Both the position numbers and the translations under genes were made by a program. Shown here one piece after another: positions 3,183 through 64,000 of a stretch of 64,000 nt of DNA (position 1 is its first letter; each line of letters begins with the position of its first letter). Origin of the DNA: Hahellaceae bacterium (GTDB lineage: Bacteria > Pseudomonadota > Gammaproteobacteria > Pseudomonadales > Oleiphilaceae); the NCBI GenBank assembly GCA_016744695.1, contig JADGDV010000014.1, positions 1 through 64,000 of the forward strand, in the 5' to 3' direction. The notes beneath the pieces are model-generated. The model was not told the origin of the DNA, made no database searches, and saw only the letters and a list, made by a program, of their open reading frames with translations.

Positions 3183-3201
3183 GGAAGTGATTGTTTTGGA
3201 C

Positions 3202-3579
3202 TTACTTCTTAAAGAGTTTATCTGCCTTTTCTTTTGCCTTATCTCTTATTTCAGGTGTTATGTGGGTTGCGAGGGCTGCAACTGCAGCGATCATGACTGA
3301 TATGTCATCAGTGTAACCCAGTATAGGGGTTAGGTCAGGGATTGCATCAATCAGACTTATAAAGTACCCCAGCGCGCCTACAATGACTGTTTTACACCAT
3401 AAAGGCGTCTCTTTTGCTCTTGCTGTATAATAAAGTATTAGGGCGTTGTGAATAGCTTCATACCCTGCTGACGAGGTGCTATTTTTAACTTTGCTCCAGA
3501 ATGATTTTTCTGGAACCTCTGTAGTTGTTTGCTTGTCTGTTGTAACTTGCTTTTTTATGGTGTTCATTAATAAGGCCAC
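3202..3579 (-). CDS. YkvA-like DUF1232 small membrane protein
   Basis: A 125-aa protein with the DUF1232 core 'YFISLIDAIPDLTPILGYTD' at about residues 72-91, followed by a hydrophobic helix 'ISVMIAAVAALATHI' and a lysine-rich tail. DUF1232 proteins are small inner-membrane proteins, widespread and of unknown function. The frame opens with GTG at 3579; the ATG four codons in (3567) is an equally good start, and neither has a clear ribosome-binding site. It converges on the LuxR regulator with only 19 bases between stops. Confidence 0.75.
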   Translation of the reverse strand: MALLMNTIKKQVTTDKQTTTEVPEKSFWSKVKNSTSSAGYEAIHNALILYYTARAKETPLWCKTVIVGALGYFISLIDAIPDLTPILGYTDDISVMIAAVAALATHITPEIRDKAKEKADKLFKK

Positions 3580-3602
3580 TTTATAATTACTTGATACTTA
3601 AC

Positions 3603-4484
3603 CTAGGCGTTTTTGTCGAGTGATGATAGGTTATTAAATCTAATGATAGATTGTATCTCATTTACATATTCTAAGCCTCTTTCAGAATACCCTTCAAGAC
3701 CGTTTGCTAGGTCTACGCCATTAATAGACTTGCCTGCTTGCCGAGTACCATTCCTGATTGCACGTAACTGCTTATATTCCGAGTGTCTGTTCAAATTTAA
3801 TACATAGCTTTCTACGGAGCCAAAAACTGAACTGAATTTAGCCACTTCATGGCTAGCACCATCACTTCTATGTTCTGGGACTAGCCCGCATCCCTTGGAA
3901 AAACACCATTGGCCAAAAAGGTTATTTCCTTCAAGAGCAAATCGAGAGGTGCCCCAGGCAGATTCGTTAGCCGCTTGAGCTAGAACCAAAGAAGGAGGGA
4001 TTCGGTCAACTTTGTTTAATAGGTTTGTAAAGAAAGTCGAATCGAACCCCTTGCTTACGTCTACACGATACTTTTTAGCAATCGACGATAAATCTTTATC
4101 ATCAACCGAGTTTAAGGTATCTGTATTGTTTATGTTTTTTTGTAGTGCTTTTATTTTTTCTCTTTCGTGTGTGACGCGTTTATTGACACTTGTAATAATA
4201 GGGATTAAGTAGCTAAAGAACTGTTGTTTCTTTTCTTGTGTATTATAAATATGAGCAAAGTCAGGCAAGGGGGCTTTTAGTGAGTTGTTTGTACTTTGAT
4301 TATGTTTAGTAAGCTTTTCTTTCGTTGGTGGAGCTTCGGGCGATACCACTTTATTTGTAGTGGTCTTGCCGAGTGTGTTAGTTGTAGCTGTGAGTGTGCC
4401 GGGAATTTGTATGCCTAAAATGAAGAAAGAGCATAGTGTGGCAAATAATAAAGAGGATAAAGTGCGTGATTGTGCTGTTATCAT
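3603..4484 (-). CDS. Bax-like glucosaminidase (peptidoglycan hydrolase)
   Basis: A 293-aa protein with an N-terminal hydrophobic signal segment (about residues 9-27), a Thr/Lys-rich linker, and a C-terminal glucosaminidase domain (about 150-285). The domain shows 'IPPSLVLAQAANESAWGTSR', in which the glutamate of 'NESAWG' is the expected catalytic acid, then 'GNNLFGQWCF' and 'YVLNLNRHSEYKQLR', all typical of the Bax/FlgJ-type family that cleaves N-acetylglucosaminyl bonds in peptidoglycan. The product should act in the periplasm or at the outer face of the envelope. It lies 23 bases upstream of the YkvA-like gene on the same strand and may be cotranscribed with it. Confidence 0.85.
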   Translation of the reverse strand: MITAQSRTLSSLLFATLCSFFILGIQIPGTLTATTNTLGKTTTNKVVSPEAPPTKEKLTKHNQSTNNSLKAPLPDFAHIYNTQEKKQQFFSYLIPIITSVNKRVTHEREKIKALQKNINNTDTLNSVDDKDLSSIAKKYRVDVSKGFDSTFFTNLLNKVDRIPPSLVLAQAANESAWGTSRFALEGNNLFGQWCFSKGCGLVPEHRSDGASHEVAKFSSVFGSVESYVLNLNRHSEYKQLRAIRNGTRQAGKSINGVDLANGLEGYSERGLEYVNEIQSIIRFNNLSSLDKNA

Positions 4485-50203: not shown

Positions 50204-50221
50204 ATGAGCAATTACAATTGA
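50204..50221 (+). promoter_or_regulatory. Possible five-codon leader ORF coupled to the kinase start
   Basis: ATG at 50204 with a good 'aaaagg' site about 10 bases upstream starts a five-codon frame (M-S-N-Y-N) ending in TGA at 50219-50221. That stop overlaps the only available start of the following kinase, TTG at 50218, as TTGA. The kinase TTG has no close ribosome-binding site of its own, so initiation by coupling to this mini-ORF is plausible. This is inference from sequence only. Confidence 0.4.
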
Positions 50222-51966
50222 AGTCCACTATATCTAAAAAAATTACATTTGCTGTTTGTAGCCTACTTATCGCACTAAATATTATTGTGAGTCTGGTTGG
50301 TTATATGAAAAGTACCCAAGAAGCAGAGGATAGGTTTGATCAGCGAGCACATTATATTACTGATATTGCGTCGCAATCAGGTACTAATCTGCTTTGGGAT
50401 TTTGAATATGGCAAGCTCGCATTATTCAGCAAGTATATTCTAGAAGATCCTTCATTATCCGGTATTTTGTTTATTTCTAAAAGCTCGGGGAGCATCGACC
50501 AAAAGCATGCTGTTGGTTTTATTAGAGGTAAAGGACCCGTCGATAAAGAAGTAAGTGATATTGCCAATCTTTTTCCAGATTATTACGATGATACCAATAA
50601 AGTCGACCTTACTTGGGATAACCTAGCTATTGGCGAACTCCATATTTTCTTTGACCGGAGAGGTCTTTACACCGAACAAAACCAAAAAATGCTGGGTAAT
50701 TTGATTTGGGAAACGATGGTGTTTTTGTTTTTCTTTGTCGCAATATATCTAGTACTTCAAACACAATTTATTGTGCCTTTTAAGCGCTCTCATGAACTGG
50801 CCATGTCTCTGACTGACAAGTTTAATAATTTTATTAAGCATATTGGAGAAGGGGGGAGTCTAGAAACTAGCCGTTTTACTGACCTTGGTGAGTTACTTGA
50901 GCGGCACTCAATTCAACTTGATCGCAAAGATGAAGTGGGTGATTTCTACCGAGCGTTTAATTCTCTGGTGAATGCTATTACGGTAATTCTTTCTGAGCTT
51001 TCCCAGTATTCTAGTCAATTAAGTATTCTAAATGAAGAGCTTGAGCATCGTGTAAAAGACCGAACTCAAGAGCTTGAAGCCACCTGTTTTGATTTAAAAA
51101 ATGCGCAAGGTCGTATGGTTCAGCAGGAAAAACTCGCATCAATCGGACAACTGGCTGCAGGTGTTGCTCATGAAATAAACAATCCTTTGGGCTATATTAG
51201 CAGCAATATTAATCGCTTAGAGGAGTACTTTAACGAGATTTTTGAGTTTATAAGTGAGCTTGAAAAAGAGGTCACGAATCATGAGGTTATTGAAGATAGC
51301 GGTGAACATGGCCACTCGCTGACCGCAATTAAAGAGAAGTTTGATTATGATTTTATTAAGCAAGACCTTCCAGAATTATTAAAGGATTGTGTTGAAGGAA
51401 GTATAAGAGTTCAAGGTATTGTTGAGAATCTAAAATCGTTTTCCAGAATGGATGACGCTGGAACGATCATAGAGTTTGATATTAATGATGCGATTAATAG
51501 CACTCATAAATTAGTGCATAACGAACTCAAATATAGTTGTGATGTAGAAAAGGATTTACAAAGCACATTGAAAATTTGGGGGCACTATGGGCAAATTAAT
51601 CAGGTTATCTCAAACCTATTGGTTAATGCCTCTCATGCGATTAGCGACACAGAAAAATTTGGCACTGTATCAATAAAAACCTGGTCTGATGATAACAATG
51701 TTTATTTGGTGATTAAGGACACTGGAAAAGGTATTCATGAAGAGCATCTAGATAAAATATTTGAGCCTTTCTTTACAACGAAGGAGGTTGGAAAAGGGAC
51801 CGGATTAGGACTCAACATCTCCTACGATATTATTGTTAACAATCATAAGGGAGAAATAACCGTTGAGAGCGAGGTAGGCAAGGGAACGACTTTTTTTATT
51901 ACTTTACCCGAAAACCAGCAGGTGACAGAAAGTGACACGATAGAAGGTGGCAGCGACGTCTCATGA
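50218..51966 (+). CDS. Membrane-bound sensor histidine kinase
   Basis: A 582-aa kinase. Transmembrane helices at about residues 8-28 and 158-180 flank a periplasmic sensor domain; a HAMP-like region and coiled coil follow ('LSILNEELEHRVKDRTQELE'). The phosphoacceptor box is 'GQLAAGVAHEINNPLGYISS' near 304-323, and the ATPase boxes are 'VISNLLVNASHAI', 'IKDTGKGIHEEHL' and 'GKGTGLGLNISYDIIVNN'. This HisKA type is common in systems with HD-GYP or c-di-GMP outputs. The start is TTG at 50218. It overlaps the next gene by four bases (ATGA) and begins a four-gene signalling operon. Confidence 0.9.
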   Translation: MKSTISKKITFAVCSLLIALNIIVSLVGYMKSTQEAEDRFDQRAHYITDIASQSGTNLLWDFEYGKLALFSKYILEDPSLSGILFISKSSGSIDQKHAVGFIRGKGPVDKEVSDIANLFPDYYDDTNKVDLTWDNLAIGELHIFFDRRGLYTEQNQKMLGNLIWETMVFLFFFVAIYLVLQTQFIVPFKRSHELAMSLTDKFNNFIKHIGEGGSLETSRFTDLGELLERHSIQLDRKDEVGDFYRAFNSLVNAITVILSELSQYSSQLSILNEELEHRVKDRTQELEATCFDLKNAQGRMVQQEKLASIGQLAAGVAHEINNPLGYISSNINRLEEYFNEIFEFISELEKEVTNHEVIEDSGEHGHSLTAIKEKFDYDFIKQDLPELLKDCVEGSIRVQGIVENLKSFSRMDDAGTIIEFDINDAINSTHKLVHNELKYSCDVEKDLQSTLKIWGHYGQINQVISNLLVNASHAISDTEKFGTVSIKTWSDDNNVYLVIKDTGKGIHEEHLDKIFEPFFTTKEVGKGTGLGLNISYDIIVNNHKGEITVESEVGKGTTFFITLPENQQVTESDTIEGGSDVS

Positions 51967-53783
51967 CATTTCATACAATTTTGAAAGACAAGTCTGTTAA
52001 ACAGGGTGGCTGCATTGATTTTTTTATGCACCTTAAGCAACAACTACCCGGAGTATCACTATCATGGGTTTGGTATGGGCACTCATACTCTAGCTCCATG
52101 CAAAATTCTTTGATGAGTTCTGATATTGATATGCTTTCAGCGGTGCCTAGTGATTTTTTTAATGTAGTGAAAGTGCATTTAATTATTAACCAGTGGGTAG
52201 AGTTTGACTTTACGTTCGCTAATAAAGGCTATCACTGCAAGGCCATTAGCGTCCAGCCTGATGAAGAAAAATCTGCGTTATTGATATTCAGTGAAAAGCC
52301 TGTTTCGCTAAGTCAGCATCAGGTAGATCTAACATTGCTTTGTCTTTCTAATATCTCTTTTTTAAGACAACAGCAGGATATTGATTTAAAGCTGAAAGAA
52401 CTTGGGCGACACATGTTGTATCAAATTGTGTGGTCTGAGTGTCTTGAATGGATCCGTACCTTAGATGTCGAAGATAATGACTTTTATAAGAAAATGATGG
52501 TGCGCACTCAGCTTCTTACTGAGTCTAATGCCAGTGCTATTTATATCGAAGTAGAAAGTGCGGCTCCGGCGTGGAGCCATAAGGGAATTAGTGCCGAGGA
52601 TATTGAGCAAATTGAGGCGATATTAAAAGACAAAAAGAAAGATCTTTACTCGTTGATGGTCATGGAAGATTTCAATCATTTAGCTGATCTCTATTCCGGT
52701 TATTCTGTATTAAAACAACACCCCCATTTATTTATCTGCCCTGTAATTGACCCTAAAGGGAAGAGAAAATCGATTATTATTCTGTCTAAAAGCAAAAACC
52801 AAGATAGTTATTCACTCACTGATCATGCCTATATTAATCAATTGATCAACCAGGTTTATAGTGGGATTGAAAAAAACAGTTTGGTTAAGGCGTTGGAGAA
52901 ATCCCATCGGTCACTCGAAAAAGAACATAATGAGCAAAAAATATTAATTAAGAAACTTCAGGATACTCAGGATCAACTGCTGCAATCTGAAAAAATGGCA
53001 TCAATCGGTCAGCTAGCAGCAGGGGTTGCCCATGAAATTAATAATCCTATTGGGTTTGTAAATTCAAATTTATCGACCTTATCGGACTTTAGCCAATCTA
53101 TGTTGATGGCGATTCATCAATTAGGCCACAGGATATCGTCGGGTAGTGATACTGAATTTAAACAGTATTATGCTGAGCTAGCTGAAAAATATGAAATAGA
53201 TTTTATTACCGATGACTTAACCGCTTTGCTGGAAGAGTCAAAAGAAGGTATTACGCGTGTTAAGGATATCGTACAGGACTTGAAAGACTTCTCTCGCACA
53301 GGGAGTGGTGAATTTGGCTTTGTTGATATTCATATTGTAATTGATAAAACACTCAATCTTATTCACAGTGAAGTTAAGTACTGTGCAGAGTTGATAACCG
53401 ACTATGGGGATCTGCCTGAGATAGAAGTAATGGACTCTCAGATAGGGCAAGTCATTTTAAACTTGTTAGTTAATGCATCTCATGCAATAGAAGAAAAAGG
53501 CACCATCACTATAAAAACAATGATGGTGGAGACAGGAGATCGTGTTCAGATTTCTGTATCAGACTCGGGTAAAGGTATAGCCCCCGAGCATATCAGCAAA
53601 CTATTTGATCCATTTTTTACCACCAAGCCCGTGGGTAAAGGGACTGGGCTTGGGCTTTCTCTCTCTTACGGCATTATTCAGCGTCACCATGGTGATATTG
53701 AGGTAGAAAGTGAATTAGGTGTAGGCACAACGTTTATTGTGACCCTACCTATACAACAACCACCAAAACTGGATAGTGAGTGA
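51963..53783 (+). CDS. Soluble sensor histidine kinase
   Basis: A 606-aa cytoplasmic kinase. The N-terminal 330 residues hold a PAS- or GAF-like sensory part without obvious cofactor motifs, then a coiled coil ('LEKSHRSLEKEHNEQKILIK'). The kinase core repeats that of the preceding gene: 'ASIGQLAAGVAHEINNPIGF' near 346-365, 'VILNLLVNASHAIEEKG', 'VSDSGKGIAPEHIS' and 'GKGTGLGLSLSYGIIQRHHG'. The strong likeness of the two kinase cores suggests duplication. It is coupled to the upstream kinase by a 4-base overlap and lies 8 bases before the REC/HD-GYP gene. Confidence 0.9.
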   Translation: MTFHTILKDKSVKQGGCIDFFMHLKQQLPGVSLSWVWYGHSYSSSMQNSLMSSDIDMLSAVPSDFFNVVKVHLIINQWVEFDFTFANKGYHCKAISVQPDEEKSALLIFSEKPVSLSQHQVDLTLLCLSNISFLRQQQDIDLKLKELGRHMLYQIVWSECLEWIRTLDVEDNDFYKKMMVRTQLLTESNASAIYIEVESAAPAWSHKGISAEDIEQIEAILKDKKKDLYSLMVMEDFNHLADLYSGYSVLKQHPHLFICPVIDPKGKRKSIIILSKSKNQDSYSLTDHAYINQLINQVYSGIEKNSLVKALEKSHRSLEKEHNEQKILIKKLQDTQDQLLQSEKMASIGQLAAGVAHEINNPIGFVNSNLSTLSDFSQSMLMAIHQLGHRISSGSDTEFKQYYAELAEKYEIDFITDDLTALLEESKEGITRVKDIVQDLKDFSRTGSGEFGFVDIHIVIDKTLNLIHSEVKYCAELITDYGDLPEIEVMDSQIGQVILNLLVNASHAIEEKGTITIKTMMVETGDRVQISVSDSGKGIAPEHISKLFDPFFTTKPVGKGTGLGLSLSYGIIQRHHGDIEVESELGVGTTFIVTLPIQQPPKLDSE

Positions 53784-53791
53784 ATTAAAAA

Positions 53792-55105
53792 ATGGATTCA
53801 GAGAAGAAGGAAACCGTTCTGTTTGTCGATGATGAAGCGCCGATACTTTCATCGTTAAAGCGTCTATTTAGAAAGGCGAGTTTTAATTGCTGTTTTGCTG
53901 AGAGCGGAGAAGAAGGGCTGAAATTATTGGAGGGTCAAACGGTTGACTTGATTGTCTCTGATATGCGGATGCCGAAAATGAGTGGTGCTGAGTTTTTGGC
54001 TATTGCCCGCACAAAATGGCCAGACACCATGAGAATATTGCTTACTGGCCACTCAGACATTAGTGCAACGATTGATGCGTTAAATAAAGGCGGGATATAT
54101 CGATATATTAGTAAGCCCTGGAATGATCAGGAACTTGAAGAGGCTATTGAGCAAAGTCTGCGGTTACGTCGCTTAGAGCGTGAGCGTGTTGAATTGTTAG
54201 AACTCACGCAAAGCCAGAATGATAAATTACAGTCGTTTAATGTTGAGTTGGAAAACAGAGTAGACGCCCGCACCCAGGAGATTCAGCAAACCGCCGATAT
54301 GCTTGATATGGCATACGATGAGTTAAAAGAAAGTTACGACCTGTTTATTCGAGTGTTTTCGACGATAGTCAGTAGTCGATTTAATTCTCAACGCATCAAT
54401 ACGAGTATGATGGCTGATCTTGCCAAAAAAATAGCTGTAAAAGTTAACTTATCAGAAGATGAGACAACCCATATATACTATGCCTGCCTACTGCATGAGC
54501 TTGGTAAGCTTAGTTTGCCAGACAATATATTGGCGCAGTCAGAAGCGTTATTGGATAACGAAAGCTTTGAAGTTTACAGGCAGTACCCTGCGTTGGGTGA
54601 AATGGTTTTGATGAGCATAGAAAGGCTAGCATTATCATCAAAAATCATTGGTACCCATATGGAGCGTTATGATGGGACAGGCTTTCCTAATGGCCTCAAA
54701 GGAACGGCTATACCACGGGGTGCTCGGTTGTTGCGTGTGGTACGAGATTTTATTGGCTTACAAATTGGTGTGATTGAAAGAGAGCCAATGAATCATGATG
54801 ATGCGTATGCTTATCTTAAGGCACATGCGGGGAAAATTTATGATCCCGGTGTCGTTAAGGTTTTAGGATTATTTCAAAAGGACTTTATAGTAGAGTCAGT
54901 CAATGCCAATGAAATTCAAATAAGTGTTATGACACTTAAGCCTGGAATGGTTATTTCCAAAGATGTCACGAATGCTAATGGCATTTTATTGATAGCAGAG
55001 GGGTCCACTCTTACAGACACAATAATAGATAGGTTTATGTCTATTGAACGTTTGGAAAATAAGAAACTGAAAGTATATATATACCTCGATGGAGAAAAGA
55101 AATGA
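53792..55105 (+). CDS. Response regulator with degenerate HD-GYP domain
   Basis: A 437-aa protein. The receiver (about residues 5-125) has 'VLFVDDEAPILSSLKRLFRK' and 'LIVSDMRMPKMSGAEFLAI'. A long coiled coil joins it to an HD-GYP-like domain at about 190-360: 'YYACLLHELGKLSLPDNILA', 'IIGTHMERYDGTGFPNGLKG' and 'RGARLLRVVRDFIGL'. The signature HD of true members is HE here and GYP is GFP, so c-di-GMP hydrolysis is doubtful. A terminal barrel-like part ('LKPGMVISKDVTNANGILLI') ends the protein. It may act as a sensor of the two adjacent kinases' output. Confidence 0.87.
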   Translation: MDSEKKETVLFVDDEAPILSSLKRLFRKASFNCCFAESGEEGLKLLEGQTVDLIVSDMRMPKMSGAEFLAIARTKWPDTMRILLTGHSDISATIDALNKGGIYRYISKPWNDQELEEAIEQSLRLRRLERERVELLELTQSQNDKLQSFNVELENRVDARTQEIQQTADMLDMAYDELKESYDLFIRVFSTIVSSRFNSQRINTSMMADLAKKIAVKVNLSEDETTHIYYACLLHELGKLSLPDNILAQSEALLDNESFEVYRQYPALGEMVLMSIERLALSSKIIGTHMERYDGTGFPNGLKGTAIPRGARLLRVVRDFIGLQIGVIEREPMNHDDAYAYLKAHAGKIYDPGVVKVLGLFQKDFIVESVNANEIQISVMTLKPGMVISKDVTNANGILLIAEGSTLTDTIIDRFMSIERLENKKLKVYIYLDGEKK

Positions 55106-55632
55106 CTGTAATTGTAATCATTGATGACGAGATTAATATTCTCAAGTCTATCCAAAGAGTATTACGTCATGAGCCTTGGGAGGTCTTAACCTTTAATGAC
55201 CCTCATCAGGCTATTCGTGACTTGAGTGGTCGCCGTGATATTGATGTAATTATATCTGATTATCGTATGCCGCAAATGAATGGTGTTGAGCTATTACAAT
55301 CCTTAAAAGAGCAATGCCCTGATTCTATTCGTATGATATTAAGTGGTCAGGTAGATATGGAGGCGGTGTTAAACGCGATTAATAAAGCGGAGGTCTATCG
55401 CTTTATTATGAAACCATGGAATGCTGAAGACCTCGTTATTACATTAAAAAATGCCATAGCCCATAATCAGCTTATTATAGAAAATAAACAACTGGCAGAA
55501 ACGGTAAGGGCCCAGCATAAAGAAATTAACAGACACGTAACCGAGCTTAAACGACTTGAGAAAGATTCCCCTGGTATTACGCAAGTGGATTGGGCGGAGG
55601 ATGGTTCGATAGACTTCACTGATGAGTTTTAA
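55102..55632 (+). CDS. Stand-alone receiver protein
   Basis: A 176-aa protein with a receiver (residues 1 to about 125: 'VIVIIDDEINILKSIQRVLR', 'DVIISDYRMPQMNGVELLQS', switch lysine in 'YRFIMKPWNAEDLVI') and a C-terminal coiled coil ('IENKQLAETVRAQHKEINRH') with an acidic end. There is no DNA-binding output. Its receiver resembles that of the preceding HD-GYP-like protein. The ATG overlaps the upstream stop (ATGA), and a terminator follows directly, so it closes the operon. Confidence 0.87.
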   Translation: MTVIVIIDDEINILKSIQRVLRHEPWEVLTFNDPHQAIRDLSGRRDIDVIISDYRMPQMNGVELLQSLKEQCPDSIRMILSGQVDMEAVLNAINKAEVYRFIMKPWNAEDLVITLKNAIAHNQLIIENKQLAETVRAQHKEINRHVTELKRLEKDSPGITQVDWAEDGSIDFTDEF

Positions 55633-55680
55633 CCTAGTCGAAAAAGCTTATATTTCTCGACTAGGTTAAAATCATTTTTT
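55627..55680. terminator. Bidirectional terminator between signalling operon and unknown operon
   Basis: A 15-base perfect inverted repeat ('ttttaacctagtcga' at 55627-55641 and its complement at 55657-55671) with a 15-base loop overlaps the end of the receiver gene and lies just before the stop of the convergent 1396-aa gene. It is followed by T runs on the plus strand and preceded by A/T runs on the other, so it should end both transcripts. Confidence 0.88.
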
Positions 55681-58600
55681 TACAATTCTTCCTTCTCTGC
55701 TTGAGCACTCGAAAGCTTTAGCCATCCCTCCTGAATCGTTGACGGTGTATGAGATAACTTTGGCTCAGGCACCGCATCGACCACGGGTGATTCATCCCAA
55801 ACGGTTAAGCCTGTTTTCCTCACCCAACTCCAATTACCCTGTATTTCAGAGGGAAGTGGCATTCGTATCGTTTCTGGGTTACTTAGAATAGGGCCAACGC
55901 GGAAGGTCACTGACATATTCTCAAGTGCAGTAGCCACATGCTCTCTCAGTAGTTCAATCTTTTTACGAGGCAATATGCCACTCGTGGCATGCACACCGCC
56001 TCGCGGATCAATCACTAGCGTTAACATCACACTCTTTGATGCGGGGTCTGTCTTGCCTGGTGCGACAGGGCGCACCTTTATTACGGGGGCTTCGTTAATA
56101 TAAGGGTGCTTAACCGGCTCTGCGGTTGAAGCTTCCGAATAGGATGAGTAAAACCCTTGTGTGGTTTGGATTGCGCCTAAATAGCCATGATGAGGACGTG
56201 ATGGACGTGTCTGGTTGGCGATCTCTTCATGGATGGGGTAAAACTGGCTGTAGTCATCATTAATGAAATAGCCAATTAAACCATCGCCGAGTCGCGTTAG
56301 TTCGCCTAAACGTACATCAAATGCCGTGCTGCTTAGGTCGCCTTGAGTTTCTAGTTCTTTGGTTTCCAAGCGTAGGCTAGCCCTTACGACAGCCAGTGGT
56401 CGACCCACTAATACTGATAAGTGTTCATCACCTTCGCGGCCCAAGGGGTCGACCGTCCATAAGGTCGAATCTATCATCCGTAGCAGTGCACCTAATGCGG
56501 AGTCGTTTGAATAGCTAGGGGTCTCTTCAGAAACGGTCATTTCAGGGTTTAAAGCACGTTGTGCATCGTGCTCTCCTGCCGCTAACAAACCATTCACTAC
56601 GCCTTGAAGGTGCTTGTTATTGACGGAGGGTGGAGCACCAAACGAACCGGGGTCGCCGGGTACGCCTTGCCATTCTAATGAGGTCGTTAGTATTTCACCA
56701 GAAATAGGGCGTCTGCGTTGAACCTGACCGAGACTATAGCCTTGATCATCATAGAACTCTAAGGCTTCATCTAAATGATCAGGTAGCAGCCATCCACAAA
56801 TGGGAGAAATCGTTTTACTCGCATCTTGTTGATCATTTTCAGCTTGGATCATTCTGAACATGAGTCGACTGGGTTGAACAATACGTGGAGGCAATCGCAT
56901 CATCTGAGGTGAGTCTGCATTACTTTCCATATCTTCGGCTTTAATCGGGTTGTTCAGGGTTTCATGGCTAACATCAATGTATTGGCCAAAGGCATCAACG
57001 ATGCGTAATTTTACTAACCTGAAATGTCCCGCGCGTACTGGGAACTTCTTAAGATTACTGATCGTTCGTTTCTCTTGTTCTAACTGGTCGAGCCCTTTCT
57101 CTTCTGCTTCGTTGCCATTAACCAAAGGAGAAAATTGGTAATCATCAACTTGGGCTAATAGGTAATCATTAAACCCTGATATATTACCGGATAGTACATC
57201 GAGCTTTTCTATGGCTTCTCGCAACTCACCTAAAGCCAATTCTTGGGCATCATTTGCAATATCTTCGGCTGAGCCATCTTCTGCGAGGTCTTCATCTTCA
57301 ATAAATTTCGTTAGTCGGTCTGCCATAGTTCTTGTAACGGCGGGAGTAAGCAGGGTCGACCCTTGGTAGGAATAACCCTCTCTCGTTTCTGTATTGGTAT
57401 CGTTAGTGTCCGTTGTATCGTAATCGTGCTCGTCTAGGTTCCAGTCATCACGATGGTTCGTATTAGGTAGCCACTCTACTTGCCAGTCCATATGAAGAGG
57501 AACCCAAGGCTTACGCCATGGTTTTTGTGCAAACTCGTTGGGTTGCCTACCTTCTATGGTTGCAACACTCGCTAATACCTGAGCATCTAATTCTGGGTTG
57601 ATCTGCAGGTTTTTCATTAATGAAATTTGTACTTGGTACTTTTGGGTGATGCTCTCTGCGGTGAGCTTATCGAGTGTGTACTGTTTAGATGGGTATTGCT
57701 TGTCTAATGCCCCTGATGATTGCAACCCTAAGATATGACTTGCGGCGATTGATGCATTATCCAGATCTAGTAATAAGGCTTCATTAAATAAAGCGTGAGT
57801 CTCTGGGGGAATTTGGCCTGAGTGTAACCGACCATTTGTAATGTGATTGGGTTTAACCGTATACAGAGTGTTGATTTTACTTGTGTTTCTTGCCTTATGG
57901 CCGATGTTAATACCCACGCTGGTGACGGTTTCATCACTTAACCGACAAATCAATAAACCATCGTCGGAAAGTCGACTGTCTTCACCATGTTTATAGCCGC
58001 GTTTAGCTTCAGAAAAAAGAATAACCGGGTCTTTTGGTTGCCAATAACGAGGCATCGATTTACGAATAGCAACCGATTTTCTTGGTTTGGCTTTTCGTTT
58101 AAAAGTGTCTGGATTGGCTTTTTTGAGCATGTTTTCTTTAGTTAATGCCATGCCATCTTTTCGCACAAAAAATCTGGATTTAACGTTTGAACGTGTCTTT
58201 TTATCGTCTTTTTTAACGGTACTTTTTTGTTTTCTACCTTGGTGCTCCCATACTTTTTTTCGCTCTATGCTGTTAGCTTCACTGCTTGAGAGGTCTGGGA
58301 ATGCGTCACCTTCCATAATAGTGTCGGTAACAAATCCACCCGGCTGAGATTCAAAATCTTCTGAATGCAATAAAGACTCTAGCGTTGCTAAGCCATCTTG
58401 CTCCTGTAGTTCAGGTAATAAGCCGTAGTGGTAACCGTTATAGATACGTTCAGCATGTTGGTGATCTGCATTTTTTGCGAGTAGTGCAGAAAGTGCTTCA
58501 ACGCCTGTGTTGCCTACGCAAACAGAGAGGTTGTCTGGGTTGGGTTTGCCTGAATTTTTTGGATCGTAATTACCACCATGCTTATTCCACTTAACACCGT

Positions 58601-59870
58601 AGGTCATACTGTGGCATAACATCTGCCTAGGCCAGTAGGATAAAAAGTCAGCATCAATTGCAACAAAAGCCTGTTCGGCGATTTCAGAGAATCGCGCTGA
58701 TTCTTCTGATAGGTAAGTGAAAGCACTACCTGAATTAATTGTGTTTAGTGCATTGTTAGCAATGTTAAGGATGCCGCTATCAAATAGAACGCCACTCGTG
58801 GAGGCCTGTGTCGGTGTTGATGCAAAGGCAGACGCAGACGCAGACTTTGCCACATATTCTAAATCCCTATATGCCTTTGGTCGCGTTGCATCGCTATACT
58901 CTACTTTAAGGCCCGCCAAACGTTCTTTTTGTTTTTGGTTCTTTTCCAGGCTTGCCAATCGAGCGTTAGCATCTTCAGTATCGCTGGACAATGCCCAGCC
59001 CATTTGATTAAGTTTTTCTTTCCATTGCTCTTTCGATGTTGGCTCATACAAAGGGTCATCATTTTTATCTGAATACCAGCCTGTTACCAAATAGCTAATA
59101 GGGCCACGATCGACATCAGACATGTCGTCATAAAACCCTAGTTTTCCTTCAACATTATCGTAATAGGCGGCGTAGCCAGGGTCACCTTCTCCTATCGCAG
59201 TAAGCCATCGGTCATTGTTGTTATCTCTATCTTCTACAAAACTCCCGAGAGAGACGACTCTATCTGCTTTATCAATGGCTTCACTCTTGATGACCCAAGC
59301 ACGCACCTGACGCTTGCTGTTATTGTTTGCGCCAGGGGATGAGCGAGTCACTAGCCAACGATCAGGCACCAGAGGGAACTCGGTATTTTCATTAACTTCA
59401 AGGTCGTTTTGTTCTTGCTGAATTGAAGATGATTCAGACGGTGGTGTTTCATCTTGTTCATTAGAAACGGTTGTTCCATGGGTTAAACCATCGGGTAAGG
59501 ACCAATGAAGGTAGATGCCGTGCTTACGTTTTTCATAGGTAGCAAAGGGAACTCTTCCACCGACTACTTGTGGGTCTTCAGATTGAACGTTTTCTGATGC
59601 TGTAGTGGCGTTAGACCTTGCTGAATCTACGCCTTCAAACTTCTCTTTCTCTTCTGTGTATCCCGCAATATTATTCGGGTTAAATAAAACGTTAGCCCAC
59701 GCGTCTTTCTCATTAGATTTGTCAACAACCAGTACATCCAGCTCTACTGGCACAAGAAGACATGGCCCTCGCCAAAGTAAAGGGTCATTGGTTCTAATGA
59801 TTTTTGCGTTTAGTCCTTCAGCCAATACTAAATTTTGATAAGCTTTTTCTATTTTATAATTACGTTTCAT
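55680..59870 (-). CDS. Very large protein of unknown function
   Basis: A 1396-aa protein with no signal peptide or membrane helix and no characterised family that I recognise. The first third has 'RGPCLLVPVELDVLVVD' (about 34-50), 'GIYLHWSLPDGLTHG' (about 118-132), 'FPLVPDRWLVTRSS' (about 165) and 'GPISYLVTGWYSDKNDDPLY' (about 253-272). Later come a Ser/Ala low-complexity patch (about 340-355), 'CHSMTYGVKWN' (about 417), a Lys/Arg-rich stretch (about 540-605), 'FRLVKLRIVDAFGQYIDV' (about 955) and a C-terminal part with 'LVIDPRGGVHATSGILPRKK' (about 1285) and 'WSWVRKTGLTVWDE'. 'GGAGGTGG' precedes the ATG, which overlaps the upstream stop by four bases. It ends the operon. Confidence 0.75.
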   Translation of the reverse strand: MKRNYKIEKAYQNLVLAEGLNAKIIRTNDPLLWRGPCLLVPVELDVLVVDKSNEKDAWANVLFNPNNIAGYTEEKEKFEGVDSARSNATTASENVQSEDPQVVGGRVPFATYEKRKHGIYLHWSLPDGLTHGTTVSNEQDETPPSESSSIQQEQNDLEVNENTEFPLVPDRWLVTRSSPGANNNSKRQVRAWVIKSEAIDKADRVVSLGSFVEDRDNNNDRWLTAIGEGDPGYAAYYDNVEGKLGFYDDMSDVDRGPISYLVTGWYSDKNDDPLYEPTSKEQWKEKLNQMGWALSSDTEDANARLASLEKNQKQKERLAGLKVEYSDATRPKAYRDLEYVAKSASASAFASTPTQASTSGVLFDSGILNIANNALNTINSGSAFTYLSEESARFSEIAEQAFVAIDADFLSYWPRQMLCHSMTYGVKWNKHGGNYDPKNSGKPNPDNLSVCVGNTGVEALSALLAKNADHQHAERIYNGYHYGLLPELQEQDGLATLESLLHSEDFESQPGGFVTDTIMEGDAFPDLSSSEANSIERKKVWEHQGRKQKSTVKKDDKKTRSNVKSRFFVRKDGMALTKENMLKKANPDTFKRKAKPRKSVAIRKSMPRYWQPKDPVILFSEAKRGYKHGEDSRLSDDGLLICRLSDETVTSVGINIGHKARNTSKINTLYTVKPNHITNGRLHSGQIPPETHALFNEALLLDLDNASIAASHILGLQSSGALDKQYPSKQYTLDKLTAESITQKYQVQISLMKNLQINPELDAQVLASVATIEGRQPNEFAQKPWRKPWVPLHMDWQVEWLPNTNHRDDWNLDEHDYDTTDTNDTNTETREGYSYQGSTLLTPAVTRTMADRLTKFIEDEDLAEDGSAEDIANDAQELALGELREAIEKLDVLSGNISGFNDYLLAQVDDYQFSPLVNGNEAEEKGLDQLEQEKRTISNLKKFPVRAGHFRLVKLRIVDAFGQYIDVSHETLNNPIKAEDMESNADSPQMMRLPPRIVQPSRLMFRMIQAENDQQDASKTISPICGWLLPDHLDEALEFYDDQGYSLGQVQRRRPISGEILTTSLEWQGVPGDPGSFGAPPSVNNKHLQGVVNGLLAAGEHDAQRALNPEMTVSEETPSYSNDSALGALLRMIDSTLWTVDPLGREGDEHLSVLVGRPLAVVRASLRLETKELETQGDLSSTAFDVRLGELTRLGDGLIGYFINDDYSQFYPIHEEIANQTRPSRPHHGYLGAIQTTQGFYSSYSEASTAEPVKHPYINEAPVIKVRPVAPGKTDPASKSVMLTLVIDPRGGVHATSGILPRKKIELLREHVATALENMSVTFRVGPILSNPETIRMPLPSEIQGNWSWVRKTGLTVWDESPVVDAVPEPKLSHTPSTIQEGWLKLSSAQAEKEEL

Positions 59871-61042
59871 TGGCCACCTCTTGGAGGTACGGGAGCGTAC
59901 GCTTCGTTTGTTAGCTGTTGAATTTCTTGGTCAGAGAGTTTGCTAATCGCCGTGGTAATACCAATGGTTGCGCCTTTGTATTGGCTGGCCATTTCAAACT
60001 TTGGCATATTGTCTAAGGGGGCTTGTTTTCCGCCCCTTTGAAAACGCTGTTGATAGGGGAATTGCAACATTTGCACACTAAATTCAGCGGCTGTTAACGG
60101 TGCATTGTAATCAAACACGTCGGTGTCATCGACGGCTCTTTTTATGTCATTAAGCGCGGTGTGAACAGCCTTTTGTAGTTCTTCTATATGTAATACTTGA
60201 GGGTTAGCTTTGCGAACAGGGATGCTAACAGTATATTGCTCATCACTTGTTCTTGGTATGCCATCAATAGGGTTGCCTTCATCGTCTTTCCACGCCACTT
60301 CATAGCCCGCATGTTCACCGGTCATATGGCGTAGCTTCATATACAAACCGCTGGGGCAAGTTGTAGAACCCTTCACCTCGTTGTTGACGAGCGTTGCTTG
60401 TACGCCAAATTGAATGCCTTCACGAGGCTCTTCAATATCAACAATATCGGGAATACCATCAAACAAACATAATAAAATATCAGGGCCTAAACGGTCCATT
60501 CTCAGCAAACGTAAAGGGGTTCCATTTGAGGTGTTTTTACCTCTATACGCTTTAACTTCTAGCCCCGTCCAACCTGAAACCGCTTGAGAGCGAAATAGAA
60601 ACCCCGTCATATCAGCCGCACTTTTTTTGGCTTTTACCCTTGAATGACGCACATTTTTGGCTTTACTTTCAGTTTCGCGCAATTTAGTTCTAATATTACG
60701 TTCTTCATCGTCTAGTGCGCCCACGACTTTATTAAAAACAGCATGATGATGAGAGAACTCTCTGCTGGTGGTCTTGCCTACACTCAGGGCACCGTCAACC
60801 ATTCGGTCGGTCCAGTTTCTATCAATATAAAAAAACCGAATTGATTCAGGTGGTAGTAATCTTTCGTCAGGAACAAGGTAATCGAAAGGTAAACCGTATA
60901 ATAATCGTAGTCGACCTAGCCAATCGTTTAGGTGTTCAGGGAGAGGCACCTCGGTGCTGTTGTAGACTGATGCCGCATAGTCTTCAACAGATAGACCGTT
61001 TACTTGTTGTATAAAATCCTTTGAATTAGCCCAACTTTTCAT
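59867..61042 (-). CDS. Unknown 391-aa protein of the large-protein operon
   Basis: A 391-aa soluble protein. Its most striking part is a dense aromatic and proline segment at residues 45-90 ('LRLLYGLPFDYLVPDERLLP' then 'PESIRFFYIDRNWTDRMVDG'), which looks like a conserved core. It continues with a coiled, charged stretch ('EERNIRTKLRETESKAKNVR'), then 'MTGFLFRSQAVSGWTGLEVK' and 'ILLCLFDGIPDIVDIEEPRE'. I do not know the fold or function. It lies between the 665-aa and 1396-aa genes, with a two-base gap to the former and a four-base overlap with the latter, so the three are made together. Confidence 0.75.
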   Translation of the reverse strand: MKSWANSKDFIQQVNGLSVEDYAASVYNSTEVPLPEHLNDWLGRLRLLYGLPFDYLVPDERLLPPESIRFFYIDRNWTDRMVDGALSVGKTTSREFSHHHAVFNKVVGALDDEERNIRTKLRETESKAKNVRHSRVKAKKSAADMTGFLFRSQAVSGWTGLEVKAYRGKNTSNGTPLRLLRMDRLGPDILLCLFDGIPDIVDIEEPREGIQFGVQATLVNNEVKGSTTCPSGLYMKLRHMTGEHAGYEVAWKDDEGNPIDGIPRTSDEQYTVSIPVRKANPQVLHIEELQKAVHTALNDIKRAVDDTDVFDYNAPLTAAEFSVQMLQFPYQQRFQRGGKQAPLDNMPKFEMASQYKGATIGITTAISKLSDQEIQQLTNEAYAPVPPRGGQ

Positions 61043-61044
61043 AA

Positions 61045-63042
61045 TTATAAGTCTCCTGGTCCTTCAAAATCTGTTATGTCGAGTTCATCAAATACCGCTG
61101 CGTGTTCGGCATTCAAGTGACCAAATTCGTGCTCTGCATCATTAAGTACGGCATCAAAACCACCCGCTAAAACAGAATCTACGGTGAGCGCTAAATCATC
61201 CACTAAGTTACCAGTGCCAATGAGGCCACCGTTTACTTGGCCAGACTGAATATCCATGCCGAGCATTGACTCAACTTGTCCTGATTCTAAGTTGAGCGCT
61301 TCCATCACGGCATGGCCATCAAGCCCTGGTAATTTATCGCTTATATCAGAAAGCCCTGTTGGGTCAGTGAGCGTGCCGAGTAAGGCTTCGTTTAATATTC
61401 GTGGGCCAACGCGGTCTAACAGTTGTTCAATGAGCATCTTATGATCCAGAAACTGGCGGGGATCAAAATTTGGAATCAATAAACCTAGTTTGTCTTTAAT
61501 ATTGTGCCCATTAATTAACTTAGAGGCTCGTTGGTGGCCTTTTCTTCGCCACTTCAGAAGCTCTAGAGCAAATTTAGAATCGTTCAATGCCATGAGTCGT
61601 CCTAACTCAAACGCAGAGGCATAACCTACGTTTTCAAGCCCTGTTAGGGGGTCAATACGCCTGGCTTGGTCTGATGTGTGGTAGGGGCCTTCATTCGTAT
61701 TACGCTCAACACCGACAGGCACCATTGGCCCGCGATAGAAACTTGTTTTCTGTTCTCCGTCACGTGCTTGGTGGTTAAGAGGAATATGCCCGCTATCTAA
61801 TGCAACATGATATTTTGTATTGGGTGTGGTGGCACTGTTAGTTGCTTGATGAGCGGTCATTCCCATTAAACCGATGCCTCCTGATTCTGGTAAGGCTTTC
61901 ATTAACCCTTCAAAATCACCTTTGCCTTCACATTGAAACGTCCAACGCGCCAAACAGATCAGTTTTATGGTGGGCTCAGGGTAAGGAAAACTGTTGAAAT
62001 CTGGGTTGTAGGTAAACCAAGAAGCTACAGCGATGGGTGTATTTGCAACATGAATCTCTTCAGTAGATGAGATATGTGTAGTCGCGAGGCTATGGGAGGC
62101 AAGCATTGGGCTTGCAGTGCGAGTACCTCGTTCATCGTGAACGATGGGCTGTTCTCTTATCTCAGTGTTATAAGGACTACCATAAATAGCTTCATGAACT
62201 TGGGTACGATAGGCCATTTCCTTGGAAACCCGTGAACGGGGTGATGGGTTTCTGGGGGTCGTCAATACATCATGACTTTTAGGAAGCATATCTTCCTGGC
62301 CTTCTAAAGAGACCAAACAAGCGACATATTTCTGACCACTTACAGGGAGCCGGTTACCCACAACCACTGAGAACCAGCCATCCTTATCTTGGCCTAGCAG
62401 TTCTTTATCTTCGGTGTTCACTTGTCGTACGTGTGTGAGCAAAGGCAGTTCACTAGCAAGGGGGGCGACTTCCTGAAATAGCGAGTTCTTAACTTCTATG
62501 CCTAAGCATACCTTGTCTCTCTCTTTTTGTGTAAGGGAGTCGTATAGTTTGTTGGCGCCAGTCTTACTGGATTCTGGCGCCCAACTAAAGGGTTTATGTG
62601 AAAGCACGCTTTCGACAGTAGAGCTAGGCGGGTCGAGTAAGGTGACCTCATCTTCAGAGAATAACAGAAGCGCTAACCAGGGCTGCTTACTAGTTTCGTC
62701 TTCGTTTGAGGTTCGCTCCCAAGGCAGTGTACGCCTTTTTAATACCGCGCAGGGCAGCCGTGCGTCAAAAGGCCCGTCTGCATTTGCGGGGGGGTAAACT
62801 GAATGAATTTCATCAGCTTGTAATATAAAGCGAGGCCCTGTGACGGTAAAAGGCGCGGTATTGATGTCAGGTAGTTTTTTAGAGTAGCCGTCATCAATTG
62901 ATAAAGACGTATCATCACCTTCCTCTTGAGTAATCGGTTCTTCTACAGACTGGTTGACCTTTAGCTCGTATTCACCTGCTTTTAAGGGAGGTGGGCAGCT
63001 ATCGTAAAAAACAACGCTGCCTTTCTTAGGTTGATTGCTCAT
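61045..63042 (-). CDS. Unknown 665-aa protein of the large-protein operon
   Basis: A 665-aa soluble protein. After an acidic N-terminus, residues 64-110 read 'PFTVTGPRFILQADEIHSVY' and 'PPANADGPFDARLPCAVLKR', followed by 'KQPWLALLLFSEDEVTLLDP'. Near residues 465-510 is a basic helical part 'VGYASAFELGRLMALNDSKF' and 'ALELLKWRRKGHQRASK'. The last 130 residues are Gly/Asp/Leu rich ('LIGTGNLVDDLALTVDSVLA'). No catalytic motif, membrane helix or signal peptide is seen and no characterised family is recognised. Its ATG overlaps the stop of the 303-aa gene by four bases. Confidence 0.75.
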   Translation of the reverse strand: MSNQPKKGSVVFYDSCPPPLKAGEYELKVNQSVEEPITQEEGDDTSLSIDDGYSKKLPDINTAPFTVTGPRFILQADEIHSVYPPANADGPFDARLPCAVLKRRTLPWERTSNEDETSKQPWLALLLFSEDEVTLLDPPSSTVESVLSHKPFSWAPESSKTGANKLYDSLTQKERDKVCLGIEVKNSLFQEVAPLASELPLLTHVRQVNTEDKELLGQDKDGWFSVVVGNRLPVSGQKYVACLVSLEGQEDMLPKSHDVLTTPRNPSPRSRVSKEMAYRTQVHEAIYGSPYNTEIREQPIVHDERGTRTASPMLASHSLATTHISSTEEIHVANTPIAVASWFTYNPDFNSFPYPEPTIKLICLARWTFQCEGKGDFEGLMKALPESGGIGLMGMTAHQATNSATTPNTKYHVALDSGHIPLNHQARDGEQKTSFYRGPMVPVGVERNTNEGPYHTSDQARRIDPLTGLENVGYASAFELGRLMALNDSKFALELLKWRRKGHQRASKLINGHNIKDKLGLLIPNFDPRQFLDHKMLIEQLLDRVGPRILNEALLGTLTDPTGLSDISDKLPGLDGHAVMEALNLESGQVESMLGMDIQSGQVNGGLIGTGNLVDDLALTVDSVLAGGFDAVLNDAEHEFGHLNAEHAAVFDELDITDFEGPGDL

Positions 63043-63950
63043 GCTTGATCTCCCTTATCAATAATAAATTGAACATCGGTTTGGCCAGCGGGGGATAATG
63101 GTCCATTTTCTATAATGGGTGTTAAACTGCTTGCTGATAACCGTTTCATCCATTGGTTCACTTCACCTTGCATGCCAAATACCCCTGTTACCTGCCAGCC
63201 TTCGGCAGTGGATGTACCGATTCTTGAAAATGCTTTCGCTGCTTTATGAGGACCATAATCCATCCCTTCTACTTCGTAGACCAGCAAGGTGTTTTCGGCC
63301 CCGCTTATGGTTAAAGGTTTGTCTGCAAGAATCAGTTCTGGACTTGCAATAGCTAGCGCATCGGCAATATCACTTATGCTATTTTTTTCGGTGCTTTGAA
63401 CCTGAATGCAGACTAAATCAACACTATTAGGTAATAGTGTTTCGATTGTGTCATTGGCGCGTGTTATATCGGTCGCATTTACAATGGCTTGTCTTACTAC
63501 TTTTCCTTTTCGTCTTAACTCTAAGGGGGCGTTAAGTGAAACTACGGCGCCACGAGCTAACAAAGTGAGTTTTGAAAGTTGGACTAATTGGCTATGGTGC
63601 TGCCAACCAACCGCTTCGAAACCATTAACTGATTCAGATAAAGCGATGGCTCCCATTGAAGGAGCATCTAAATTAATGGCTTGTTGTGTTGTTGGTTTCC
63701 CTAAACCAGTAATGGCAATACGAGCGCTTCTTTTGGGTGGTTGCCATTGATGCTTGCCGGGACCAAACTCTTTCTCTTGCAGTAAGGTTCCACCTCGATT
63801 GACAGCCGTTATTTTAAAGCCCTGGTTACCCGAGAACGAAACAGTGGGCATTTCGCCTTGGGTATTGCGTGTAGGTAAATCCCAAACCTGTGTAGACCCT
63901 GAAGCAACAATGTTACTCACTTCTACATCACGGCCATCAGCCATACTCAT
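63039..63950 (-). CDS. Unknown 303-aa protein of the large-protein operon
   Basis: A 303-aa protein, beta-rich in its first 110 residues ('STQVWDLPTRNTQGEMPTVS', 'GFKITAVNRGGTLLQEKEFG', 'RSARIAITGLGKPTTQ') and mixed after that ('ALAIASPELILADKPLTISG', 'HKAAKAFSRIGTSTAEGWQV'). No motif or family is recognised. I chose the ATG at 63950 because it overlaps an apparent upstream stop as ATGA, like the other junctions of this operon. The same frame stays open to the window edge, so a longer N-terminus cannot be strictly excluded. Confidence 0.7.
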   Translation of the reverse strand: MSMADGRDVEVSNIVASGSTQVWDLPTRNTQGEMPTVSFSGNQGFKITAVNRGGTLLQEKEFGPGKHQWQPPKRSARIAITGLGKPTTQQAINLDAPSMGAIALSESVNGFEAVGWQHHSQLVQLSKLTLLARGAVVSLNAPLELRRKGKVVRQAIVNATDITRANDTIETLLPNSVDLVCIQVQSTEKNSISDIADALAIASPELILADKPLTISGAENTLLVYEVEGMDYGPHKAAKAFSRIGTSTAEGWQVTGVFGMQGEVNQWMKRLSASSLTPIIENGPLSPAGQTDVQFIIDKGDQA

Positions 63951-64000
63951 TGTTTCAATCGTTTTAAACTGTTTTCGAAAGCTTGAAGTGCTGTGCCCAG
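63947..64000 (-). CDS. C-terminal end of a fifth gene of the operon (partial)
   Basis: The last 17 codons of a minus-strand frame enter from the right edge, reading 'LGTALQAFENSLKRLKQ' and a TGA that overlaps the ATG of the next gene. The sequence is an amphipathic helix with plausible codon use. It is the only one of the frames here that both ends at the start of the next gene and repeats the ATGA junction. No function can be given from so short a piece. Confidence 0.5.
   Translation of the reverse strand: MGTALQAFENSLKRLKQ

What the first reader, a model, noticed from the sequence alone, without database searches (positions are those of the whole stretch)
55680..64000. Operon of very large uncharacterised proteins, candidate undescribed system
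Four long soluble proteins (1396, 391, 665 and 303 aa), and the tail of a fifth, are joined by ATGA overlaps or a 2-base gap, which implies equimolar, coupled production. None shows signal peptides, membrane helices or catalytic motifs that I know. Several dense aromatic and proline-rich segments look strongly conserved. Such tight packing of big proteins of unknown fold suggests a multi-protein assembly. A phage-tail-like or secreted particle, or another large cell structure, is possible, but nothing in the sequence proves any of these.
Basis: partly seen in the sequence, partly recalled or inferred. Interest (0 to 1): 0.78.

Follow-up and report, generated by a model that had tools for sequence, protein, structure and literature searches.

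The report
Undescribed mobile giant-protein gene cassette
A set of four tightly linked genes, one of them coding for a 3,670-residue protein with a lipase-like part, is passed between distant bacteria as one unit and matches almost nothing in the protein family libraries, so it looks like a real but undescribed protein machine.

Summary
The packed operon is real, but one end was misread. The '303 aa' protein is no separate gene: its frame runs without a stop past the window edge into a 3,670-aa giant (D; contig 63039-74051), which is also the 'fifth' protein. D carries Pfam DUF6603 (E 1.3e-143) and a lipase-like domain with a serine elbow. The 665-, 391- and 1396-aa proteins (A, B, C) match no Pfam, PHROGs, NCBIfam or PADLOC family. 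D-A-B-C lies on one strand in 25 of 27 loci compared, from Hydrogenophaga and a Moraxellaceae MAG to Streptomyces, Embleya and Paenibacillus plasmids; A and B are one ORF in 9. DUF6603 is sparse (9 of 398 phylum-wide genomes), the operon sits beside tRNA-Met, and its tree rejects one host-family clade, so it moves horizontally. A second form, also in haloarchaea, shares D and the start of A. Enzymes beside it vary. Of 17 long-giant genomes, a class-3 lipase lies at the cassette in 3 and in none of the 14 whose giant keeps the internal domain. I favour a mobile scaffold holding a replaceable hydrolase, lipase-type here. Phage-tail and particle readings found no support. Both structure predictions failed; the fold stays unknown.

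The parts
63039..64000 (-). C-terminal end of giant protein D (DUF6603 protein, 3670 aa in all; contig 63039-74051).
   Evidence: DUF6603 at residues 2515-3010, lipase-like domain about residues 1053-1400, both beyond the window edge
61045..63042 (-). protein A, 665 aa; its N-terminal part is related to protein X of the second (type II) cassette
   Evidence: hhalign A against X 96.6%, E 7e-10
59867..61042 (-). protein B, 391 aa; one ORF with A in 9 of 26 loci that have both
55680..59870 (-). protein C, 1396 aa

Best explanation
The operon encodes a horizontally mobile four-protein complex (D-A-B-C) that acts as a scaffold or container for a hydrolase. Shown: four co-inherited genes in fixed order; A and B sometimes one chain; DUF6603 in D; a lipase-like domain inside D with a serine elbow and a following histidine in this lineage; in another lineage that domain is missing from D and a class-3 lipase gene lies in the cluster; other enzymes stand beside DUF6603 genes in other lineages. 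Inferred: D, A, B and C bind each other; D's long alternating-pattern beta regions hold a hydrophobic substrate or shelter the enzyme; in this organism the complex acts on a lipid or acyl ester. Where it acts and against what is not known.
For: D-A-B-C on one strand in 25 of 27 loci (loci were found by matches to A or DUF6603, so the D-A pairing is partly selected, B and C are not); G649 has all four as well. A-B in one ORF in 9 of 26. Lipase-like domain: with the Hydrogenophaga domain as query the best eight of 11 PDB matches are lipases or other alpha/beta-hydrolases or an esterase, weak (E 0.0075-0.16); the profile that includes the own domain gives a putative lipase (E 0.003). Serine elbow AHSxSG and a following HxGFG are kept in own, NORP69 and both Hydrogenophaga. 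Of 16 giants over 2800 aa, 14 have the domain and two, G041 and G649, do not. A whole-genome search for Lipase_3 in 17 long-giant genomes finds one at the cassette in G041 (58 bases upstream of D), G008 (upstream of D; its D was not tested for the domain) and G649 (about 5 kb downstream of C), and at the cassette in none of the 14 genomes whose giant has the domain (for the proteins). Other enzymes beside DUF6603 genes: metallo-beta-lactamase (Embleya NBC_00896; G372 just under cut-off), PhoD (Salinigranum, G829), subtilase (G003), LCAT-like (Halalkalicoccus, just under cut-off). Acyl-chain enzymes in the cluster: AMP-binding/ketosynthase/acyltransferase in G041 and G649, FabA-like and ketosynthase in G372. 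Beta-type alternation above shuffles in D 1-1000, 1400-2500 and the DUF6603 stretch (z 4.3, 6.3, 2.9), not in A, B, C or three control proteins.
Against: No physical interaction data. Both AlphaFold2 models are unusable (mean pLDDT 27.7 and 37.9), so no fold supports a scaffold or groove. The hydrolase serine is lost in nine aligned giants and in G585, so catalysis by D is not general. G041 and G649 are sister branches and G008 is of the same genus as G041, so the domain-for-gene swap counts once. Pfam hits of the domain are below curated cut-offs and no catalytic acid was assigned. The beta pattern is absent from D 3020-3670 and only z 2.0 in the minimal Paenibacillus D. No enzyme family was found in the neighbours that I scanned for Streptomyces NBC_01276, S. 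europaeiscabiei, the G098 group, G416 and (upstream) G187; neighbours of several other loci were not scanned. Enzyme neighbours were not counted against random genes. Subtilase, metallo-beta-lactamase and the Paenibacillus PLD-like protein need not act on lipids.
Confidence: 0.4

Rival explanations
1. A toxin or effector delivery assembly (phage-tail-like, Tc-like or type VI-dependent): A, B, C and D form a carrier and the swapped hydrolase is the delivered effector.
For: Some enzymes in the neighbourhoods belong to classes known as antibacterial effectors (recalled): class-3 lipases, PLD-like, and a Tle1-like phospholipase about 6 kb from the Streptomyces NBC_01724 DUF6603 gene on the other strand. 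The own genome has one type VI sheath gene, on another contig. A protein beside the Halalkalicoccus DUF6603 gene matches a T6SS effector model over part of its length, 39.5 bits against a cut-off of 150.
Against: No sheath, tube, baseplate or Tc family in A, B or C or, by Pfam, in D; no relatives in 50,697 phage records or IMG/VR; of 15 cassette genomes 8 lack a type VI sheath, 11 a phage sheath, 7 both. In Paenibacillus polymyxa baseplate-V genes lie about 9-14 kb away, not in the cassette.
Confidence: 0.2
2. An accessory part of lipid, polyketide or lipopeptide metabolism: D is a large hydrophobic-chain binder and the neighbouring enzymes make, trim or release the acyl product.
For: AMP-binding/ketosynthase/acyltransferase genes flank the cassette in G041 and G649, FabA-like and ketosynthase genes in G372; lipase-type domain or gene at the cassette; amphipathic beta pattern of most of D. 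By eye a CaiB-type CoA-transferase-like ORF lies 2.7 kb upstream of the own operon (L002:13751-14932).
Against: The genes next to the own operon on the other side are signal-transduction genes. G041 and G649 are one lineage and G442 and G372 nearly identical, so this is two lineages. Most other loci were not scanned for such genes.
Confidence: 0.2
3. A biological-conflict or anti-phage suicide system in which the hydrolase is the intracellular effector and the large proteins are sensors or scaffold.
For: Sparse, mobile distribution, plasmid carriage, varied hydrolases including a subtilase that matches a PADLOC model; a CHAT gene and a gene named as part of a CATRA conflict system about 5-10 kb from the Streptomyces NBC_01276 cassette.
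Against: No PADLOC match to A, B, C, the end of D, a Paenibacillus DUF6603 protein or type II X, Y, Z (the whole giant was not scanned there); no NTPase family in A, B, C or D; about 19 kb of mostly structural protein is unusual for known suicide systems (recalled).
Confidence: 0.15

Closest known systems
Pfam DUF6603 (PF20248)
   Same: D contains a full-length DUF6603 domain (479.6 bits, cut-off 27)
   Different: Described only as a family of unknown function; the paper library searched holds no paper naming it; A, B and C have no family at all
Bacterial lipases of the alpha/beta-hydrolase fold (PDB 1qge, 1tah, 7x2p)
   Same: Serine elbow region and following TVGTP block align
   Different: Embedded in a giant protein; match covers about 70 residues, E 0.003-0.014; acid and lid not identified; serine lost in ten relatives
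Polymorphic effector / Tle phospholipase systems of type VI secretion (recalled)
   Same: Varied hydrolases beside a conserved multi-gene unit
   Different: No type VI structural family found in A, B, C or D; 8 of 15 cassette genomes examined lack a type VI sheath

Membership tests
DUF6603 proteins (PF20248) | match above the curated cut-off | tested here: met
   479.6 bits against 27, residues 2515-3010; one copy in the own genome
Catalytic alpha/beta-hydrolase (lipase) | nucleophile elbow, small-x-Ser-x-small | tested here: met
   AHSHSG from residue 1198; AHSxSG in all four rows of the own clade
Catalytic alpha/beta-hydrolase (lipase) | full Ser-Asp-His triad and fold | tested here: inconclusive
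   an invariant His follows (HxGFG); acid not assigned; Pfam hits below cut-off; no structure
Contractile phage-tail-like particle | sheath/tube/baseplate proteins encoded with it | tested here: not met
   no Pfam or PHROGs match in A, B, C; no phage-sheath gene in the own genome or in 11 of 15 cassette genomes, the own counted
Tc toxin complex | TcA, TcB or TcC domains | tested here: not met
   Pfam scans of A, B, C, the last 303 residues of D and its first 3351 list no such family
Known anti-phage defence system | match to a PADLOC model | tested here: not met
   of D only the end and a Paenibacillus homologue were scanned. Only the G003 subtilase neighbour matches, a subtilase model
Secreted or surface complex | signal peptide, or proof of export | not testable with these tools
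   no signal peptide seen by eye at the starts printed; other export routes cannot be excluded

The most novel reading that the evidence does not exclude
A new kind of prokaryotic megacomplex, with a related form in haloarchaea: a giant amphipathic beta-protein (D) with partners A, B and C forms a chamber or groove that holds lipid or acyl substrates and presents them to a built-in or exchangeable hydrolase, spread as a mobile cassette.
Probability: 0.25. Interest if true: 0.82.

Novelty: categorically new. Interest (0 to 1): 0.62.

Why it matters
A set of large proteins, about 19 kb here, whose gene order is kept from Paenibacillus and Streptomyces to Hydrogenophaga and Moraxellaceae, with a related form in haloarchaea, must do something selected for; yet three of the four proteins match no model in the four libraries tried. 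If it is a hydrolase-carrying scaffold, it would be a new way to house an enzyme. The minimal versions (D of about 900 aa in Paenibacillus, A and B in one ORF) make it directly testable by expression and cryo-EM. 'Categorically new' rests on absence of sequence matches; a solved structure could still move it into a known kind.

Tried and rejected
Phage tail, prophage or particle: set aside for lack of phage, PHROGs, IMG/VR or sheath support. Structures of the DUF6603 domain and of protein A: AlphaFold2 with 3 and 4 rows gave mean pLDDT 27.7 and 37.9; no fold search was run because such models give meaningless matches. PDB sequence profiles of A and C: no match up to E 5; of DUF6603 and B: best E 0.51 and 0.052, to unrelated proteins. 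B and C have no detectable counterpart in the type II cassette. DUF6603-like repeats elsewhere in D: not found with the DUF6603 profile; but residues within 1-501 and 1201-1701 resemble each other (94%), suggesting an old internal duplication. A terminator between C and the response regulator gene: none found. Papers: no paper in the library holds DUF6603; three further searches listed none on the cassette (two listed nothing; 122 counted 14 papers and listed five on S. clavuligerus, of which I saw only the listing and the starts of abstracts). No paper was opened.

Full report
Observation. The three inner ORFs and their joints are as described: C 55680-59870, B 59867-61042, A 61045-63042, all minus strand; two ATGA overlaps and one 2-base gap. 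The fourth, '303 aa', is an internal start of a longer frame. The window lies at G000:C30:1-64000 of an 81,124-base contig. Reading across the edge gives one ORF of 3,670 aa, contig 63039-74051, preceded by a 301-aa ORF at contig 74124-75029 and two tRNA-Met genes that lie in an 87-base perfect repeat.

Families. A, B, C and the last 303 residues of D match nothing in Pfam, NCBIfam or PADLOC at E up to 1, and only the end of D has two chance-level PHROGs matches. D matches DUF6603 (479.6 bits) and, below cut-off, alpha/beta-hydrolases around residue 1200 (residues 1-3351). The 301-aa protein matches nothing in Pfam, PADLOC or NCBIfam.

Relatives. One genome-contig scan with A gave three loci: a Moraxellaceae MAG and two Hydrogenophaga. 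Among 196 relatives, A is found in 9 genomes and DUF6603 in 10, the own counted in both; the extra one is G003. DUF6603 occurs in 9 of 398 genomes sampled across the phylum, 6 of 369 of the class and 10 of 163 of the family. Plasmid records with a match: 8 for A (Streptomyces, Embleya, Paenibacillus) and 14 for DUF6603, haloarchaea included.

Cassette. I compared 27 loci (21 from genome stretches and contigs, the own included, and 6 from plasmids; G008, G953 and G760, also positive, were not fetched as long stretches). Profiles of A, B and C were searched against all ORFs and DUF6603 by phmmer. All four lie on one strand in 25 of 27; P. sonchi shows A-B and C but no D; G003 shows none of A, B, C at that threshold. 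A and B are one ORF in 9 of the 26 loci that have both. Loci were found with A or DUF6603, so the D-A pairing is partly selected; B and C were not used to find them. Of three loci added later, G649 has A, B and C beside D; G585 has A and C (B was not listed, its place being taken by an opposite-strand ORF in my simple gene selection); G829 is of the second type.

Second type. G003 (own genus), G829, two Streptomyces plasmids and two haloarchaeal plasmids have DUF6603 with other large proteins X, Y, Z. Profile comparison links D to D2 (99.8%) and the first part of A to X (96.6%, E 7e-10); B and C have no counterpart. So DUF6603 and the A-type module are the shared core. Three weaker plasmid hits (Paraburkholderia, Natrinema, Gemmatirosa) were not worked out.

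Mobility. A tree of C puts the seven own-family rows on three separate branches: the own row with the Moraxellaceae MAG and then Hydrogenophaga, G041 with G649 of another family, and the g12 genomes with G585; one clade for the family is rejected (p-AU 1.6e-61; quick tree, LG+G4, with long branches and odd letter make-up flagged). In congeners G001 and G003 the interval between the same response-regulator gene and the same tRNA-Met pair holds other genes and no cassette; ORFs of similar lengths and order lie at 39-45.5 kb in the window (by length and order only). The cassette has 44.9% G+C; the contig to its left 40.3% (5-kb windows mean 40.5, sd 1.3, highest 43.5), to its right 42.8%, so the contrast is clear on one side only. 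tRNA genes were found in 3 of the 36 stretches scanned (own, G003, G224), with unequal flanks: weak.

The enzyme. The lipase-like domain of D (about residues 1053-1400) is found in 14 of 16 giants over 2800 aa and in no shorter D at E 0.001. The serine elbow is intact in own, NORP69, HydroA and HydroB and lost in nine others aligned; G585 also lacks it. PDB matches are weak: with the Hydrogenophaga domain as query the best eight of 11 are lipases or related hydrolases, the other three unrelated; the four-row profile gives two lipases, E 0.003 and 0.67. As a test I searched Lipase_3 in 17 genomes with long giants: 7 have a match somewhere; it lies at the cassette in G041, G008 and G649 and in none of the 14 genomes whose giant has the internal domain. 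G041 and G649 lack the domain; G008 was not tested for it. In G649 the lipase gene is about 5 kb downstream of C on the same strand; in G041 it ends 58 bases before D. G041 and G649 are sisters, so this is one event. Other enzymes beside DUF6603 genes: metallo-beta-lactamase (Embleya NBC_00896 above cut-off; G372 just under), PhoD (Salinigranum, G829), subtilase (G003), LCAT-like (Halalkalicoccus, just under cut-off), M64 peptidase (G442, about 6 kb upstream), PLD-like (Paenibacillus polymyxa; Streptomyces NBC_01724, other strand). No family was recognised for the other neighbours scanned in G187 (upstream), the G098 group, G416, Streptomyces NBC_01276 and S. europaeiscabiei. Neighbours of S. 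clavuligerus, Embleya NBC_00888, G279, G458, G224, G427, NORP69 and Hydrogenophaga were not scanned with Pfam.

Shape of D. Beta-type alternation of hydrophobic residues exceeds shuffles in D 1-1000 (z 4.3), 1400-2500 (6.3) and the DUF6603 stretch (2.9), not in 1000-1400, 3020-3670, A, B, C or three control proteins; the minimal Paenibacillus D gives z 2.0. This fits long amphipathic strands but proves no groove. Structure predictions were too poor to use.

Delivery machines. In 15 of the 22 numbered genomes known to me to have DUF6603, a phage-type sheath is absent from 11, the own included; a type VI sheath is absent from 8 and present once in the own genome on contig C4; 7 have neither. So the cassette does not depend on either.

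Verdict. 'Categorically new' is by absence of matches in the libraries and papers searched, not by proof of a new fold.

Noticed in passing
L002:11195-11400 (contig 75195-75400): Two tRNA-Met genes in tandem, within an 87-base perfect direct repeat, immediately upstream of the operon; a tRNA-Met pair is also present in congeners G001 and G003.
   Followed up: partly
L047/L036 (G041) and L108 (G649): Small glycine-rich, collagen-like proteins (by eye; no Pfam match for three scanned) lie with the class-3 lipase and ketosynthase genes near the cassette in two bacterial families.
   Followed up: partly
L057:3319-8314: Paenibacillus polymyxa plasmid p-YT9A has two genes annotated as baseplate protein V with a DUF4280 gene and pentapeptide-repeat genes upstream of its cassette; may be a separate delivery locus.
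   Followed up: no
L038, L039, L040 (G187): One genome carries three diverged copies of the cassette on three contigs; a protein downstream of one has a LamG-like stretch just under the Pfam cut-off.
   Followed up: partly
L076:21152-30526: A haloarchaeal protein of 3124 aa is annotated 'BGTF surface domain-containing', but its start does not look like a signal peptide and it is related to type II protein Y; the name may mislead.
   Followed up: partly
window 50218-55632: Two histidine kinases, an HD-domain response regulator and a second response regulator run towards the cassette; the HD-domain regulator has a close match (77-82%) in 3 of 4 congeners.
   Followed up: partly
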